Positions 1 through 56,528 of a stretch of 64,000 nt of DNA are shown piece after piece. The stretch lies in assembly GCA_028688895.1 (NCBI GenBank), contig JAQTXG010000004.1, positions 32,438-96,437 of the forward strand, given 5' to 3'. The notes under the pieces were generated by a model that saw only the letters and a program-made list of their open reading frames with translations, ran no database searches and was not told the origin of the DNA. How positions within the stretch are numbered: position 1 is the first letter of the stretch; every line of letters starts with the position of its first letter. A program made the translations under genes and the position numbers. The DNA is from Candidatus Altimarinota bacterium (GTDB lineage Bacteria; Patescibacteriota; Gracilibacteria; BD1-5; UBA6164).

Positions 1-140
1 GTACTAAGGTTTTAACCCATCGGCTTTCAGCCACTTCCCTTGAAAAGGGAAGAAAGTGTTAATGGAATGTGTACTAAGGTTTTAACCCATCGGCTTTCAG
101 CCACTTCCCTTGAAAAGGGAAGAAAGTTTTAATGGAATCA
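1..140. repeat. 70-bp tandem repeat, two copies
   Basis: Two head-to-tail copies of a 70-base unit (1-70 and 71-140) differ at one position near the end. Each copy carries the hairpin CTTCCCTTGAAAAGGGAAG. The same hairpin, with a shared AACCCATC flank, recurs in the intergenic repeat at about 51512-51553, so this is a member of a dispersed repeat family and not a local accident. The window may cut into a longer array at its left edge. Confidence 0.9.
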
Positions 141-261: not shown

Positions 262-1605
262 ATGAAAAAAAATGTGTATATAAAATGATGAGAAAAAGCT
301 GGTGTTTGATTTCTGGCTTTTTCTTTGATGGAATTGATTGTACTGGTATTTATCTCGGGATTGATATGTAGTATGGTTTATTCTAGTTTTTTGGTATACT
401 CAAAAAATAATAGGGATGCGACTAGGAAAAGTGATTTGACTTATATATGACAGTGACTAGATAGTTATTTGATAAAAAATGATATATTACCTGAAAATAA
501 TTCTGGTATAGATATATTGGCAAGGTGAAATGTAGTAAATAGGCAATGATTTGTAAATAGTGATGTATTGCAAAGTATATGAATAAGTGAAAAATTGATT
601 GATCCAGATAGAAATGTGAGTTATACTTATGTAACAGATATGGATAATAAAAAATATCAATTGGTGACTCTATTAGAAAACAACTGGTTTGAAAGTGATA
701 ATGTAAACTTTGCCAAGAGATTGCCATATACTCTATGAAGTGAGTTGTGAGTATTTTTGGATATAAATGATAATACGCCTCTACAAGAAAATAGTGATGA
801 AGACATAGAATTGGAGCACAAAGTTTATGAGGACTATATAGTATATATGAATACTGATAAATATGTAACTGGAAAAGATATATGACTAGAGATGTGATAT
901 AGAATAAACCCAATAGCTACTTGTTTACATATTCTCAAAAATGGTAATGCTCATGGTGATTGAGTGTATACTATAAATCCTGATCAAATAGATAGTTTTG
1001 ATGTATACTGTGATATGACTACTGATGGTGGAGGTTGGACACTGTTTTATGCTAATAATGGTATAGAAGATTCTCCTACACAGGAAAGTTATGTAGAGAT
1101 GAGAAACAATTTAGATGATGGTGAAGAGTATGAATTGACTGATTACAGTACTGGTACCCTAGCTGGTCTCTTGGATTATAATTATTTCACTGATAATGGT
1201 GCAAAAGAAGTGCTGATGAAAAATCATGCATTGGCAGATGAAGAAAAATGGTGAAAGGTGTTTTTTGACTCAGCTGAAACACTAAACTGGGCTTTGTGAG
1301 ATCAAGTATTATGAAGTGGTATAGATAAATGTATAGATTTACCTGAATGAGCTAGTTGGTGAGTGACTAGTGATACTTGAAATGATGATTATAGTGATTT
1401 GACTCAGATGATGGCTCATGGTTGAACTAGTTGGTGAATATCACACGCGAATTATGATTGTAATGATTATGAAGCTACAAGTATATTACCACACTTATCA
1501 TTTTATGGAGCAAATAATAATACTACTGATAATAGAGCTAGAAGTAATACTTTGATTTGATGAAGTTGGTGATGAGAAAATGAGTATAGGTATTTCGTGA
1601 GATAG
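262..1605 (+). CDS. Type IV pilin-like protein with fibrinogen-like C-terminal domain
   Basis: With TGA as Gly this reads as one 447-residue protein. Residues about 10-40 form a class III/IV signal: basic start, then FLAFSLMELIVLVFISGL, the pattern of prepilins and pseudopilins with the Glu shortly after the cleavage region. The C-terminal half carries the fibrinogen-related signature FDVYCDMTTDGGGWTLF (about residues 250-270), followed by a Trp/Gly-rich segment ending GGSWGGENEYRYFVR. Fibrinogen-like domains bind glycans or N-acetyl groups, so I infer a surface-exposed, pilus-associated adhesin. Several TGA codons fall inside the gene, and the second half alone would look like a separate gene under the standard code. 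The pilin part is family-level, the fibrinogen motif is clear, and the ligand is unknown. Confidence 0.85.
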
Positions 1606-1667: not shown

Positions 1668-1829
1668 ATGATGGATGAGATAAATTGGAGTTTTTTGCTG
1701 GGTATGGTGATTGTGATTTTTGTTGTATCATATTGGAAAGAAAAGGATTTAGTCACCGGAACTATGAGAGGAGCATTTATATCAGTTGTTGCAATGGCAA
1801 TTATGTTGTCTGTGCAAATATTTGTGTAA
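1668..1829 (+). CDS. Small two-helix membrane protein, unknown
   Basis: The 53-residue protein starts at an ATG-ATG pair preceded by GGAGG, an unusually good ribosome binding site for this genome. It has two hydrophobic helices (about residues 8-22 and 34-53) joined by a short charged loop (SYWKEKD). It contains no TGA codon. It lies 62 bases after the pilin-like gene on the same strand and ends just before a strong terminator, so the two may share a transcript. I do not recognise the family; size and topology would suit a small holin-like or accessory membrane peptide, but nothing proves that. Confidence 0.65.
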   Translation: MMDEINWSFLLGMVIVIFVVSYWKEKDLVTGTMRGAFISVVAMAIMLSVQIFV

Positions 1830-1837
1830 ATGCTGTT

Positions 1838-1877
1838 AAAAAAAGAACGATTTGGTTAAATCGTTCTTTTACTTTAT
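1838..1877. terminator. Bidirectional terminator, left copy of the pair flanking ATPase 1
   Basis: AAAGAACGATTT / AAATCGTTCTTT hairpin with A-run and T-run on either side. The 38 bases 1840-1877 are repeated at 3216-3253 with only two loop differences (GG versus AA). The copy includes the last codons and stop of the lipase gene (read on the minus strand ATAAAGTAA), although that gene ends at the other copy. Confidence 0.9.
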
Positions 1878-1885
1878 CATTAATT

Positions 1886-3112
1886 TTATACTTCAGATAT
1901 AAAATCTATAAAATTTATTATTTCAAAATTGTTATTTTCTTCTATGGTTACTTTTTTATCAAAATAAACTAAAATGTTTTTTTGTTTATTATCTGAAAAT
2001 ACACTTATTTCCCTTTTCAAATTGTCACTATTTAACTCATAACATACTTGTATATTTGTCTCTATTTCTGGTATATAAAAATCTATCTCACCTCAATTTT
2101 TCTTGAAATAAACTTTTTCATATTTTTTAATTAGTTCAATAAAAACCATATTTTCAAATGATTGTCATATATTTTCTTTGTGTCAAAGTATTTTATTGAA
2201 TCACATATTGTACAAAAAAGGTTTTTTTGCAGCTTTTGGATTGTAATAATTTTCTATTTCATAAACATAAAATATATTCTTTATGTATTCATAATATTCA
2301 TATAATGTCGTTTTTCAAACCTTTATATTTAGTGATTTTAATTCATTGTAAATTTTACTAATATTGAGTGTTTTTGTAAACGAATTAGTAATACTTTTCA
2401 ATATATATTTAAGTGAATATTCATTATCTATTTTGTATCTTTCTATTAAATCTTTATATATAAGTACATCTAAATATGTCTTCAAATTATCTATTTTAAA
2501 TAGATTATTAGTAGATAACAATATTTCAGGAAATGATCAATATTCTAGTATGTCATTGAATGTATTTTTTACCTTTGCTAATTCTTGTGTAGCATAATAT
2601 TTTTTGAACTCTATATTTTTAAATCTCAATGCTTCTTTAAAAGTGAGAGGAAAAACTTTGTATTCAAATACTCTTCATCTGAAATGTGTACTCAGCTCTG
2701 ATGATAATAGCTTTGAATTACTTCCACTTAAAAATATCTTGTATCATAGGTTGTATAATGATAGTACAAACTCTTTGAAGTTTTGTATATCTTGTATCTC
2801 ATCAAAGACAAAAAATGGTTCCAAATCTGGATATATTTCTTTGAAATCAAGCAATAATATTTTATAATCTATTATTTCTCATGTATTTAATGAAAAATCT
2901 ATAAATACAACTTGTTCAAGTTTTATTTTATTTAATAGTATTAATTCTTTTATAAAATCAATCATTAAAAAAGTTTTTCAAACCCTTCTAGGTCATATAA
3001 AACTAACTATTTTATTTAAAACTAATAAATCATCATAAAAAATATAATCTCTTTTAATTGTATTTATATCTTTTATCAATACCTGATTATCTAATATTAA
3101 TTGTTTAAACAT
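1886..3112 (-). CDS. AAA ATPase with DUF4143 domain (cassette 1)
   Basis: About 408 residues. The N-terminal ATPase domain has Walker A GPRRVGKTF (about residues 40-48; the first Gly is TGA) and Walker B FFVFDEIQ, then the LSGSNSKLLSSELSTHFRGR segment typical of the AAA_14/DUF4143 family. The C-terminal half has GGEIDFYI, the PD-(D/E)xK-like motif of DUF4143. I chose the ATG giving MFKQLILDNQ; an upstream in-frame ATG at 3184 would add 24 Tyr/Ile-rich residues that do not look like the family. The gene lies between two direct copies of one terminator, in the gap between two convergent genes. A second gene of this family at 53355-54596 sits in exactly the same kind of place. Family assignment is firm; the cellular role of these ATPases is poorly known. 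Confidence 0.88.
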
Positions 3113-3215
3113 ACTTGTATGTAAGTATAAAATATAATATAATGTATCTATATATAAGTATATATTAAAATAATTATAATGCAAATATATAAAAATAATT
3201 GTTTTTTGATAAGCT

Positions 3216-3253
3216 AAAAAGAACGATTTAATTAAATCGTTCTTTTACTTTAT
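3216..3253. terminator. Bidirectional terminator, right copy (overlaps lipase stop)
   Basis: Same 38-base element as 1840-1877, here with AA in the loop. It contains the stop codon and last two codons of the lipase gene and would terminate that gene. Before the ATPase was inserted, one copy probably served both the lipase gene and the small protein gene at 1668-1829. Confidence 0.88.
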
Positions 3254-5650
3254 ATACTCTATTATCATATCTATCAAAAAGTTTACTTTTTCATTGTTTG
3301 CGTATTTTGGATTTTTTGATTCTTTGAATTTGATTAGATTTTTTTTCAGTTTTTGTTTTTTGGCTTTTGTGTATTTCTTGTCTAGGATTTCGTATAGTTT
3401 TATCAATATATCGTGGTATTTTTCGCTAAGTTCTACTTTTTTGAGTGCAGTTGATACTTCTGTATCTGTTAGTTTGTAGTTGGCTTTGTTTCAGTCTATA
3501 TCTACTAGATAATTTTCTACTACTCATTTTTTGGCTGTTCAGGCTATTACAAAAGAAGCTGTTTCATCTGTATATCCTGTACTTGTAGTATCTGGATTTG
3601 TCTTTATCTCGTTTAACACTATATGGTATTCTCAATCCCCTGTTCCATAGCTATGGATTTTGTTCATTATTTTTCCGGTACCTGTTCTAGGTATTAGGAA
3701 AAACTCTGGTTCGTTTGATCATTCAGTATCTCCACTAGTCCATGCTCATGGGATTTCATTTACTATTTTTCAGGTTTCTGGGTCTATTCATATCTTTCTA
3801 CCTTGTTCATCTTCTATTATTAAATTGATTGGTGAGAGGATTTCGTAGCGGAGAAGAGAGTCTAATTGTCATAAATCTCACGTGAAATTTAGACTGATTC
3901 TATCGTAGTTGTCTTTGTTTCTATTACTTAGATAATTTTTGATATCTGAATCAGAAAATAATTGTTTATAGTTCTTTTCAAATTTGTTATCCAAATTTGA
4001 ATCGTTCATCAATCATACTGTTGAGTATGTTGAAACAGGTACTTTTCATACTGGTGTAGTAGCTTTTGTAATTGTCGTTTTTGTATCTCTATAATCCAGA
4101 TATCATATGTATTTGTATAGTAATTCTTGTTCTTTTTTTAAATTTACGGCTACTTCCTTTGAATTTAAAATTGTATTTCAGGTAATTCTATCTAATACTT
4201 TAATTGCTGTTAAAATAGGCATTTTTGTATGACTACATAATTCTTTATCTACTTCTCACAATTTTAATACCAATCAATTTTCAGTATTTATTCATTTTGT
4301 GTCGTCATAACATTTGATTTGTTCTGATTTAAATTTACTATTATCTTTTATGATTTCGTCTGTATCATTTGTAGATAATAACAAATTGTTAGTTGGTACA
4401 GTTCAATCTCATCACAATCATGAATAATTTTTCAATATTTTTCATATAGAGTATATTCAAAATTTTATACTAAAATAATATTTGTCATATATATCTAATC
4501 ATTTATATGTATTTGTATGATCAGGAGTAGTGATACCATACAATCAAGTATTATATTCTTTTGGTATATCAAATCAAACTATATTGTTTACATCTCATTC
4601 ATTTCATGTGATATCTGAATAATACATAGTATACTTTCAAGATATATTTCAAAACATATTATTTATGCTTGATTTTTTGTTTAATTCTTCTAGAAAACTA
4701 TTTTGTGGATATATATTTTTATCCATTTTTTTTCAATCTCTTTCTAGATATAACAATTTATCATTGAATTTATTTGTATTTCATATATCTGGTAATAATT
4801 GTCAAATAGTGACTATTCATTTTGGTATGGATTCTTTAAAACCATGTAATATTTCATATAATCACAAATCAAAAGTAACTCATAACTGTCATTTTAATAA
4901 TACTGATTTAGTAAATCATTCTGTTTTTTCTAAATCTCATTTTTCCCATATGATAAAGCTTTTTGGTGCTCCTCTATTTGGAGTAGCAATGGTTATAAAT
5001 TGATTTACTCTCGTGAAATTGTCACAATCATTGTTTTTGAAATATTTCAATTGTCAATTTGCTCTTTGTTTACTATTATAGTATGCTATATATTCACTTT
5101 CATCTGCACACATATCTGATAACATAGCACGAGCTACTAGTCATCACATAGAGTGTCATATAATGTTTACTGTTCAGATATCACATCAGTTTTCTTGCTC
5201 GTATTTTTCTCTGATTTGTAATATGAGGTTGCTAAGTAGTTTTGCTGTCACTTTGTTGTCTTTTTTCCAGTCATATCAAAATAGATAAAGTGATTGTTTT
5301 GGGTTTCAGTCTATATATGTCTCAAATTGGTCTTTGTAAAACACATCTCTGATACTATATCAGTTTTGTTTGAATGTATAGAACAATGTATCATAAGAAT
5401 GAGTAATAGGATCGGGAATCCATCTCTTGGTTTTTGACTCATTGTATCACTCTTCACTATACCATGATGCTAGTATTCATGGGATAAATATAGTAGGGAT
5501 ATCTGATTGTTTGAAATCCTTGCATTTGTTGCTTCAAAAGCTAAGCACAAAGCTTTCATCATCTGTAAGTGGTCAGTAGCTTTGAGTGTAGGCGCTTAAA
5601 CTACTAGTATTTAATATTATCAATAATAAAATTGATATGAATTTTTTCAT
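3245..5650 (-). CDS. Secreted lipase/esterase, alpha/beta hydrolase
   Basis: 801 residues. An N-terminal signal peptide (basic MKK, hydrophobic core to about residue 20, ending SLSA) shows export. The nucleophile elbow GHSMGG (about 165-170, Ser168) follows a strand VNII; both glycines after Met are TGA. Upstream, IPTIFIPGILASWY gives the oxyanion-hole region seen in LCAT/PGAP1-type and triacylglycerol lipases, and HDCGGDGTVP (about residue 420) fits the Asp/Gly segment before the second half. The last 350 residues are an extra domain of unknown type ending in a Lys-rich helical stretch. I infer a lipid-degrading enzyme acting outside the cytoplasm, sensible for an organism that takes lipids from a host. 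Substrate cannot be read from sequence. It follows the membrane gene at 5661-6539 by 10 bases and is probably co-transcribed with it. Confidence 0.87.
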
Positions 5651-51573: not shown

Positions 51574-51592
51574 TATGATAAAAATAAACAAA

Positions 51593-53185
51593 AGTGACTC
51601 AATAATTGATATAATTATCAAGATAAATAACTGTAAACAAAAGGAAATCGTGTTAGATTTCCCTTTTTGACATCCAATTTTGCATAACTACACTTCTCTA
51701 AAAATACTTAAAAACAAAGCTGGAAACAAAGATTTAATACTTATTACTAGTGATAAAACAGCCAAAAACATATGAAAGAGTCTATGAATCAAATATTCTC
51801 AATTATGAGATACAGATTTGTTGGAGTACAATTATACATTTTTGGAATATACAAAATATTTATTTAAAAGATATTTAACTGAAATAAAACAAATATTTTC
51901 AAATAAAACACCTGATATAATATTTGAATACCAAAAAAAATATTCTACTAGCAATTCAAAAATATGATTTTTCTTGCTTGGTTTACTTGGTTCTGTATTG
52001 TTATTTATATTTATTTTTTACTTTGCTGTAAACAAAACCTATATAGAAATAACTCCTGAAATAAGTATCAGAACTAAATCTGAAAATTTTATTTTTAGAG
52101 CTGCTTCAGCTGAAGAAGTGTTAAATGAAAATATTATAAAGCTGACTCAGGTATCTAAACTTATTTACTTGACTAACACATTTTGAACTACTGGAGTAAA
52201 TGAAGATTCACTAAAAAGATCTAAATGAAAAGTAACTTTTTATAATGAACTAGAAGAACCAGTTGATTTACTCGCTAATACTAGAATAGAAACAAAAGAT
52301 GGCGTTTTGTTTACAACAGATACACCTATCAGTTTAGATAAAGCTACTAGAACAGCAACTTGATGAATAATTCCATCACATGTAGAAATAAAAGTGACTT
52401 CAAGTTTAAAGGATTCGAAATGAAAAATTATTTGAACCAGAGCAAATATATGAACATGAGTTTTGTTAACACTACCTGGTTTAAAGATAAATAATGATAA
52501 AATATATGCAAAAACTACTGAACCTATAGATGGTTGAAATGAAAACTATGTAAAAAAACTTACACAAGAAGATATAGATAATGCAAAAAATATTTTGGAA
52601 TGAAAGCTGAAACAACAAGCTTTGAATGAATTGAAAAAGCAAATACTAGATGATAATGCAAAAAATAACATAACTTATGATATACTTTGAGTAGATGATA
52701 TACTTTTTTACAGTGATTTCAAAGTAATGTGAGATGAAAAATTGAAAGTATGAGCAAATATAGATAGTTTTGATTTATCTGGTACTATAAAAATAACTAG
52801 TTATATATATAATACTGAAAAAGTTTTAAACCAGATGTCTAGTACTATAAAAGATACTATGTTAAAAGATGTAGAAAAATTGCTTTTTGTAAATGATAAA
52901 TCTTTGAGAATATCTGTAGTATTGAACAAACAAGATAGACCTTTAGAAATAAAGGCTACTGCACAAGTAGAATCATTTTTTTCACATAATTTTTTGAATG
53001 AAAAAAATAATTATATAGAAAAACTAAAATCTTCAATAGCTTGATTAGAAAAAGATGATGCTATAAAAGTATTGCTAAACAATCAAAATATCAGTGATGT
53101 AAAAATGGAAATCAGACCTTTTTTTATAAATAAAGTATCAAAGATTTTGGATAATATTGAAGTATCTGTGGTTGAAAAGAATTAA
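51593..53185 (+). CDS. Single-pass membrane protein of the baseplate-J-like CPR type
   Basis: About 530 residues. Order: a cytoplasmic alpha/beta part (EIVLDFPFGHPI, KDLILITSDKTAKNIGKSLGI), one transmembrane helix (FFLLGLLGSVLLFIFIFYFA, about 125-145), then a long outer part with IEITPEI, RSKGKVTFYNELEEP-VDLLANTRIETKDGVLF, a 'TFYN...L.A.T...T.DG..F' pattern seen in surface proteins of CPR bacteria and resembling baseplate-J-like domains. I use the GTG at 51593 because the frame upstream closes; an ATG at 51574, with an AGGAAG some 12 bases before it, is one base out of frame but would give the family-typical start MIKINKSDS. A one-base frameshift or sequence error near 51600 is therefore possible. 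Function: probably surface/attachment; unproven. Confidence 0.7.
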
Positions 53186-53280
53186 GTAAAGTAAGCTCTG
53201 CAAAATTCACATCTAGAAAAATTTCTAGTTGTGGTATACTAATTTCTATTCTTTTGAAGGACATTTTAAGTTTATTTAAA

Positions 53281-53319
53281 AAAATACTTTACAGTAAAAC
53301 TGTAAAGTATTTTTTTATC
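53281..53319. terminator. Bidirectional terminator, left copy flanking ATPase 2
   Basis: AATACTTTACAGT / ACTGTAAAGTATT hairpin. The 39 bases are identical to 54692-54730 and include the GATAAAAAAA that forms the end of the helicase gene at the other copy. Positions 53186-53280 before it hold no gene. Confidence 0.92.
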
Positions 53320-53354
53320 CAATTGATGATAAGTAAAATTTGATTTATCTATAA

Positions 53355-54596
53355 TTACAAGACTGAATTTAGATTTAATACATTTATATGTTTTATTCAA
53401 TTTCTAACTCAAAAATTAACATCATCCATAGTTACAACATATTTTTCCCATGAGTCACTTATTTTTTCTAAACTTCAGAATTCTCTATTTATTGTATCTT
53501 CTGATGATAATAAATATGATATTTGGAAATATTTTGTTATTCCATTTTTTTCTATAATAAAATCTACTTCTTCGTTATCTTTTAATCTTCAAATCTTTAT
53601 TTCATATCACATCCTCCTGAATTCTAAATATGCATAGTTTTCAAGTAGATTTCAAATATCTCTGGATAAATTAAAACCAGAAATAGCATTTCTAAGTCAC
53701 AAATCTCATACATAATATTTATTATATATTTCAAAGTATTTTTTAGTTATTGGATCTTCAGCTTTGACCAAATTTAACAAGTATACTTTTAATCAATAAT
53801 CTAGATAATTTAACACGGTTTCTGGTGAAATATTTACCCTTTGTGATTTTAAATAATCACTTATACTTTTTGCAGAAAATACATGTCATATATTAGAAAA
53901 AACATATTTATATAAGTTTTCAAAAAAATCAATATTTCTAAGTCAAAAGTATTTTACGATGTCTTTTAATACTATAGTAGAATATATTCACTTCAAATAA
54001 TTAAAAATCACTACATCTTCTTTATTCATAAAAAATCTTCATGGTAATCATCCATATTTCAAATATTCCATAAATAATTCTTTTGAAATTTTTTCTCATG
54101 AAAAAAGAGAATATTCTTCTAAACATAAAGGAAATATTTCAAATTCAATATATCTTCAAGTTAACAATGTCGATAATTCGCTAGATAACAAATTTGAATT
54201 ACTTCATGTTATAAAAATTTCTATATTATTTTGATATACTGATAATATACTATTTATAAATCTTTCCCAATCATGAATTTCCTGAATTTCATCTATTCAA
54301 ACAAATATTTTTCAATTGGTAGTATTTTCTAAAAACTTTTTAAATTCCTTATTTAAGTCATTATAATCCTTGATATTATCATATTCTAAATCTTCTTTAT
54401 TTATATAAAAAAAATTTTTTTTATTTATTTTTTGAGAATTATAAAGTTCTCTAATCAAAGTCTTTAATATATAGCTTTTTCACACTCTTCTCATTCATGT
54501 TAATACTTTTATAACATTTGAATCAAGATACTTGTTTAGATTATTTATATAATTTTTTCTAATTATAATATCTTGTTTTAATATTTCATCTATCAT
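53355..54596 (-). CDS. AAA ATPase with DUF4143 domain (cassette 2)
   Basis: 413 residues. Walker A LTGMRRVGKSY (about residues 35-45), Walker B IFVGIDEIQEI, then ITGSNSNLLSSELSTLLTGR, the family's sensor region; the C-terminal half has YEIKIGRLKDNEEVDFII with the PD-(D/E)xK-like motif of DUF4143. It resembles cassette 1 (1886-3112) in layout and position: minus strand, inside the gap between converging genes, and between two direct copies of the local terminator. The start MIDEILKQDI is the family-typical N-terminus. No recombinase gene accompanies it. Biological role unknown. Confidence 0.9.
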
Positions 54597-54691
54597 TGAA
54601 AAATAGTTAAAAAATAAATATATTTCAGTTATATATGAAATATATTTATATTTTAAAATTATGCAAATTTATTATTTCTCTATTCAAATAA

Positions 54692-54725
54692 AAAATACTT
54701 TACAGTAAAACTGTAAAGTATTTTT

Positions 54726-54730
<5 letters not shown>
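54692..54730. terminator. Bidirectional terminator, right copy (helicase end)
   Basis: Identical 39-base copy of 53281-53319; it contains the helicase stop codon (54726-54728). Confidence 0.92.

Positions 54731-56528
<1,798 letters not shown>

What the first reader, a model, noticed from the sequence alone, without database searches (positions are those of the whole stretch)
1840..3253. DUF4143 ATPase gene enclosed by two copies of a bidirectional terminator (site 1)
The 38 bases at 1840-1877 and 3216-3253 differ only in the loop. The unit includes the last codons and stop of the neighbouring lipase gene, although that gene needs only one copy. The ATPase lies between them. The simplest reading is that the ATPase entered the single terminator between two converging genes and left a duplication.
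Basis: partly seen in the sequence, partly recalled or inferred. Interest (0 to 1): 0.78.

Follow-up and report, generated by a model that had tools for sequence, protein, structure and literature searches.

The report
One-gene mobile ATPase duplicates its target
In this small-genome bacterium a single gene, for an ATPase joined to a nuclease-like domain, dropped into the end of a lipase gene and left that end duplicated on both sides; the same mark surrounds about a quarter of its relatives sampled across the phylum, so a family counted among the commonest putative antiviral systems looks like a one-gene mobile element.

Summary
The repeat is real: 1840-1877 and 3216-3253 match at 36 of 38 bases, form strong hairpins, occur nowhere else in the genome and enclose an AAA_14-DUF4143 ATPase gene. 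The copy at 3216 is native: the lipase stop lies in it, and the lipase paralog and genus relatives end in one hairpin, no ATPase. Site 1 has no orthologous empty site. Site 2 of the same window (53279-53319/54690-54730, 41/41 identical, a 28%-identical ATPase) has: in 11 relatives the flanking genes converge directly without an ATPase, in one congener with the same terminator stem. Insertion with target duplication is shown at site 2 and strongly supported at site 1.

Terminators are only one kind of target. In Patescibacteria 44 of 181 such genes are enclosed by direct repeats of 22-380 bp (median 58), coding or not, against about 5 of 229 control genes. The shared unit is promoter plus ORF, without inverted repeats or transposase. 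The protein is an archaeal-type AAA+ ATPase plus a PD-(D/E)XK fold, PADLOC family PDC-S01. Best reading: a one-gene mobile element making long, variable target duplications; that its own protein does this is inferred. I found no report of it.

The parts
3216..3253 (.). Site 1, native copy of the target: lipase Ile-Lys-stop plus hairpin terminator
   Evidence: Lipase stop lies at 3245-3247; lipase paralog and relatives have one hairpin directly after the stop
1840..1877 (.). Site 1, derived copy of the target, 36/38 identical, with orphan ATAAAGTAA
1878..3215 (-). Site 1, inserted unit of 1338 bp: leader plus one gene
1886..3112 (-). AAA_14-DUF4143 (PDC-S01) ATPase gene; the mechanical ORF starts at 3184, the likely ATG is at 3110-3112
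   Evidence: start inferred from homologs beginning MFKQ (L125, L130)
3113..3215 (-). Leader of the unit, probably its promoter
   Evidence: Inference from the leader shared by relatives
3245..5650 (-). Lipase-like target gene, intact
1668..1829 (+). Small convergent ORF, 53 aa, no homolog in the genus
54690..54730 (.). Site 2, native copy of the target: helicase stop plus terminator
   Evidence: empty sites
53279..53319 (.). Site 2, derived copy, 41/41 identical
53320..54689 (-). Site 2, inserted unit of 1370 bp
53355..54596 (-). Second AAA_14-DUF4143 (PDC-S01) ATPase gene, 28% identical to the first
54726..56528 (-). DEAD-box helicase flanking site 2
51575..53185 (+). Convergent 536-aa gene flanking site 2, used to find the empty sites
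   Evidence: present in 47 of 48 family genomes

Best explanation
A one-gene mobile unit (own promoter plus an AAA+ ATPase fused to a PD-(D/E)XK-type domain, family AAA_14-DUF4143 / PDC-S01) inserted at the 3' end of the lipase gene and left the target segment of 38 bp on both sides. Shown: insertion with duplication at site 2; native and derived copy at site 1; the same mark, with repeats of 22-380 bp, around about a quarter of family members sampled in the phylum. Inferred: the protein drives its own movement, the ATPase opening or holding DNA and the nuclease-like domain nicking the two strands tens to hundreds of bases apart; a copy of the gene is joined there and the gaps are filled, which gives long duplications of variable length. 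The unit has no terminator of its own, so insertion at a gene's terminator leaves the host gene intact and gives the new gene a terminator.
For: Repeat unique in the genome. Lipase paralog and relatives with one terminator and no ATPase. Empty site 2 in 11 genomes, same stem in G002. In the order 21 of 98 ATPase genes versus 4 of 162 other genes of the same loci (Fisher p 8e-7). In other Patescibacteria 20 of 78 versus 1 of 67 (p 2e-5). Shared DNA of homologs at different loci limited to about -46..-116 through the stop codon. Repeats contain the start of a PIG-L gene (L085), the start of a DegT-family gene (L075) and the end of a glycosyltransferase gene, the last hit twice in nested fashion (L154). 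Protein: archaeal AAA+ fold, Z 18.3 to 2fna, and restriction-endonuclease-like C-terminal domain. COG1373, which I take from memory to be this family, is among genes nearly identical between gut genera (PMC10782964).
Against: No orthologous empty site for site 1. The two window proteins lack the canonical ExK of the nuclease motif (QISY and QVCY instead). No conserved ends and no motif at the repeat borders, which a dedicated recombinase would usually need. Three quarters of the members show no repeats (old, or moved otherwise). Eight plasmid-borne relatives outside the phylum show none.
Confidence: 0.66

Rival explanations
1. The unit is passive cargo: ATPase genes reach new places by host double-strand-break repair or template-switching replication, which duplicates the target; the protein does not catalyse it.
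For: No terminal repeats, no border motif, filler of tens of bases between repeat and shared unit; canonical ExK missing in the window's two proteins.
Against: Other genes in the same loci rarely carry such repeats (4/162 and 1/67), so the process is specific to this family.
Confidence: 0.18
2. Single-crossover (Campbell-type) integration: a circle carrying the ATPase and a piece of the target recombines with the chromosome by homology, which leaves direct repeats of any length.
For: Repeat length varies from 22 to 380 bp and no border motif exists.
Against: The circle would need to carry a piece of each of some 44 different targets; nothing found here supplies such circles. Repeats of 22-60 bp are short for ordinary homologous recombination (own knowledge).
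Confidence: 0.1
3. Site-specific island: the repeats are attachment sites of a tyrosine or serine integrase acting in trans.
For: Direct repeats next to terminators and gene ends resemble att sites (own knowledge).
Against: Every insertion has its own repeat sequence and length, and the unit holds no integrase gene.
Confidence: 0.03
4. Two independent or ancestral terminators, alike by selection or by a dispersed repeat family, with no insertion event.
For: A few other cases in the order (L092, L018) may rest on dispersed intergenic repeats.
Against: The 38-mer is unique to site 1, one copy keeps a meaningless lipase stop, and site 2 has empty sites in relatives.
Confidence: 0.03

Closest known systems
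PDC-S01, phage defence candidate of PADLOC
   Same: Same protein family: HMM hits 8e-129 and 1.4e-72. PMC12988326 describes it as an ATPase domain fused to the PD-(D/E)XK superfamily and as the fourth most common defence across prokaryotes.
   Different: Described as an antiviral candidate found by a guilt-by-embedding approach, validation pending for most such candidates; no report of one-gene mobility or target duplication in the papers searched.
Archaeal AAA+ ATPases SSO1545 (2fna) and PABY2304 (2qen)
   Same: Fold of residues 3-306: Z 18.3, rmsd 3.4, 269 aligned, and Z 17.8.
   Different: About 20% sequence identity; whether their genes are mobile was not tested.
Insertion sequences and DDE transposons
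   Same: Short mobile DNA with one gene and a target duplication.
   Different: No terminal inverted repeats seen, no transposase; duplication length variable and far longer than the 2-15 bp usual there (own knowledge).
R2-type retrotransposons and Tn7 TnsA
   Same: Restriction-endonuclease-like domains of mobile elements; the DUF4143 domain's fold hits include R2 proteins and TnsA. The proposed two offset nicks resemble R2 biochemistry (own knowledge).
   Different: No reverse transcriptase and no TnsB-like transposase in the unit.
Free-standing homing endonuclease genes
   Same: A single nuclease-type gene that spreads between sites.
   Different: Homing copies a gene into a cognate site by homology, without long new target duplications (own knowledge); here targets are unrelated to one another.

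Membership tests
AAA_14-DUF4143 / PDC-S01 | Match to the family profiles over most of the protein | tested here: met
   Pfam; PADLOC
PDC-S01 as a defence system | Protection of the host against phage | not testable with these tools
   Needs phage assays; PMC12988326 says validation is pending for most such candidates
PD-(D/E)XK nucleases | Restriction-endonuclease-like fold of the C-terminal domain | tested here: met
   Domain folded alone (pLDDT 78); the matches are mostly of this superfamily, best Z 9.3, most at 6-8.4
PD-(D/E)XK nucleases | Canonical D...(D/E)xK catalytic motif in the window's two proteins | tested here: not met
   E-[IV]-D-F present, but QISY and QVCY in place of ExK; other flanked members have ExK
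Mobile element with target duplication | Empty site with one copy of the repeated sequence in relatives | tested here: met
   Site 2: 11 genomes without the ATPase, same stem in G002
Mobile element with target duplication | Orthologous empty site for site 1 | tested here: inconclusive
   Convergent partner not conserved; lipase paralog and relatives have one terminator
Insertion sequence / DDE transposon | Terminal inverted repeats and fixed short target duplication | tested here: not met
   No shared ends; duplications 22-380 bp
Integrase-driven genomic island | Integrase gene in the unit and the same att sequence at each insertion | tested here: not met
   Unit holds one ATPase gene; every repeat is different

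The most novel reading that the evidence does not exclude
AAA_14-DUF4143 (PDC-S01) proteins are the enzymes of a previously unrecognised class of one-gene mobile element that moves by staggered breaks tens to hundreds of bases apart, without terminal repeats or a known transposase. The wide spread of PDC-S01 would then at least partly reflect selfish spread rather than selection for antiviral defence.
Probability: 0.42. Interest if true: 0.93.

Novelty: new variant of a known kind. Interest (0 to 1): 0.84.

Why it matters
PDC-S01 was reported as the fourth most common putative defence system in prokaryotes (PMC12988326), yet its action is unknown. If its genes are one-gene mobile elements, counts of defence systems need rereading. 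There would also be a compact AAA+-nuclease protein tied to insertion with very long target duplications, which can be tested directly in a laboratory strain.

Tried and rejected
Empty site for site 1: the small convergent protein has no homolog in the genus; fibrinogen-like orthologs exist in G002 and G004, but on other contigs than the lipase. Empty sites for three other insertions (folD neighbour of L097, nrdR neighbour of L114, G064:C134) failed because synteny is lost. A common motif at the repeat ends: a weak A-start/T-end bias in the Gracilibacteria set only, absent in the rest. Conserved unit ends or inverted repeats: none; an upstream palindrome is common but looks like an operator. 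Sequence relatives in the PDB: no convincing hit. Virus collections: two contigs in IMG/VR and 20 phage records, not pursued. Relatives outside Patescibacteria: 8 plasmid genes without repeats, and no enclosing repeat seen in the non-Patescibacteria loci; a genome search could not be centred on another phylum. The whole genome was not available as a file, so only stretches around the genes were taken.

Full report
OBSERVATION. The window lies in G000:C38:32438-96437, a 26% GC stretch that reads with table 25 (TGA=Gly); relatives of its ATPases come from records named Candidatus Gracilibacteria. The 38-base units at 1840-1877 and 3216-3253 match at 36 positions. The hairpin is found at no other place in the genome and the repeat far exceeds shuffled sequence (score 32 against at most 18). 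Both copies fold strongly on both strands. Between them lies one AAA_14-DUF4143 gene.

WHICH COPY IS NATIVE. The lipase stop codon is inside the copy at 3216-3253. The lipase paralog of the same genome (C32) and the lipases of G002 (two copies) and G004 each end with a stop codon followed at once by a single hairpin, with no ATPase. The copy at 1840-1877 keeps an orphan ATAAAGTAA, the lipase's Ile-Lys-stop. So the ancestral state was lipase plus one terminator, and the distal copy is derived. An orthologous empty site could not be found, because the convergent partner differs in relatives.

SITE 2 GIVES THE EMPTY SITE. The same window holds a second case: 53279-53319 and 54690-54730, identical at 41 of 41 bases, different in sequence from the site 1 repeat, around another AAA_14-DUF4143 gene that is 28% identical to the first. 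The flanking genes, a 536-aa protein and a DEAD-box helicase, are directly convergent without an ATPase in 11 relatives, three of them in the same genus. The spacer is 25-91 bp in ten and 191 bp in one (L160, two hairpins); the scan found hairpins in 10 of the 11, and G001's is imperfect. In G002 the single hairpin is AAAAAATACTTTACA-AAAT-TGTAAAGTATTTTTT, the same stem as in the window. Insertion with duplication is thereby shown for site 2. A stretch of 93 bases between the 536-aa gene and the distal copy remains unexplained.

GENERALITY. I took 98 DUF4143 genes from the order and looked for direct repeats enclosing each. 21 have them at score 22 or more, from 23 to 380 bp, 81-100% identical. 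Of 162 other genes of the same loci (two ATPases first counted as controls were removed), 4 do (Fisher p 8e-7). In a second, independent set from other members of the phylum, 20 of 78 ATPase genes and 1 of 67 controls do, at score 20 or more (p 2e-5). Pooled with uniform settings, 44 of 181 ATPase genes are enclosed, with a median repeat of 58 bp and a median unit of 1368 bp. The control sets used slightly different settings, so the pooled control figure (about 5 of 229) is approximate. Eleven of the 44 repeats hold a hairpin; others are coding. Examples: the start of a PIG-L gene (L085), the start of a DegT-family gene (L075), and the end of a glycosyltransferase gene struck twice in nested fashion with repeats of 380 and 82 bp (L154). 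In these, one copy belongs to an intact gene and the other is a fragment. A few cases (L092, L018) may rest on dispersed intergenic repeats.

THE UNIT. Pairs of close homologs at different places share DNA only from about 46-116 bases before the start codon to about the stop codon, at most +38 (one pair, L125/L130, is the same insertion in two species and matches throughout). The shared leader holds -35/-10-like boxes and, in one subfamily, a palindrome such as ATTTCATATATAACTGAAAT. There are no terminal inverted repeats and no border motif. The unit is thus a promoter and one gene, without terminator.

THE PROTEIN. The site 2 protein was modelled at mean pLDDT 83. Residues 3-306 match the archaeal AAA+ ATPases 2fna (Z 18.3, rmsd 3.4, 269 aligned) and 2qen (Z 17.8). 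The C-terminal domain alone (pLDDT 78) matches mostly restriction-endonuclease-like proteins: Bax1, McrC, Card1/Can2, VRR_NUC, Hjc, TnsA. Z values of 6-9 are moderate, but the list is largely of one superfamily. The family motif is E-[IV]-D-[FY] followed by either E-[VI]-K or Q-V-[CAS]-Y. The two window proteins are of the second type, so their catalytic competence is uncertain; flanked members occur in both types. PADLOC calls the family PDC-S01.

LITERATURE. PMC12988326 reports PDC-S01 as the fourth most common defence across prokaryotes, with 9,986 in archaea and 29,494 in bacteria, an ATPase domain fused to the PD-(D/E)XK superfamily, validation pending for most such candidates. PMC13356809 finds it the most frequent individual locus in rumen genomes. 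PMC10782964 lists COG1373, 'Predicted ATPase, AAA+ superfamily', among genes nearly identical between genera; that COG1373 is this family is my own knowledge. Searches for DUF4143, COG1373 and long target duplications returned nothing on one-gene mobility. The library lacks most subscription papers, so this absence is weak evidence.

MECHANISM AND LIMITS. Shown: insertion with long target duplication (site 2), a derived copy (site 1), a family-wide association, a one-gene unit. Inferred: the protein makes two nicks far apart and a copy of its gene is joined there. Passive capture by host repair is the main rival; specificity to this family argues against it, the missing ends and the missing ExK in the window's proteins argue for it. 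Outside Patescibacteria I tested only eight plasmid-borne genes, none flanked. My confidence is about 0.9 for insertion with duplication and about 0.45 for self-mobilisation.

Noticed in passing
window 9895-49106: Sixteen paralogous genes of about 1.5-1.9 kb, mostly in near-tandem array on the minus strand; one has a weak treble-clef zinc-finger hit, another no Pfam hit at all.
   Followed up: partly
window 1-138: Tandem 68-nt repeat (two copies, 99%) with a TTCCCTTGAAAAGGGAA hairpin; similar CCCTT..AAGGG hairpins occur in related genomes.
   Followed up: no
window 53186-53278: 93 bases between the 536-aa gene and the distal repeat copy of site 2 have no counterpart in the short spacers of relatives; origin unknown.
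   Followed up: no
L154 2768-6449: Two different ATPases inserted one after the other at the same glycosyltransferase 3' end, the second inside the duplication left by the first.
   Followed up: partly
L105, L152, L147, L113, L121, upstream of the ATPase: Palindromes (arms up to 27 bp) within about 100 bases before the start codon; possible operator or recognition site of the protein.
   Followed up: partly
L019 4908-4947 and 7735-7774: The terminator after a DUF4143 gene recurs 2.8 kb downstream after another gene (37/40), both copies starting with the stop codon.
   Followed up: no
L082 949-1959: A RhuM-family gene is also enclosed by a 38-bp direct repeat; RhuM is also on the transfer list of PMC10782964.
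   Followed up: no
L075 3966-6000: The DegT-family target gene carries an intein with a LAGLIDADG-like domain.
   Followed up: no
G057: One genome of the order holds 29 DUF4143 matches, several of them clustered: the strongest expansion seen.
   Followed up: no
window 262-1605: Gene with a fibrinogen C-terminal-type domain and many distant relatives in the family.
   Followed up: no
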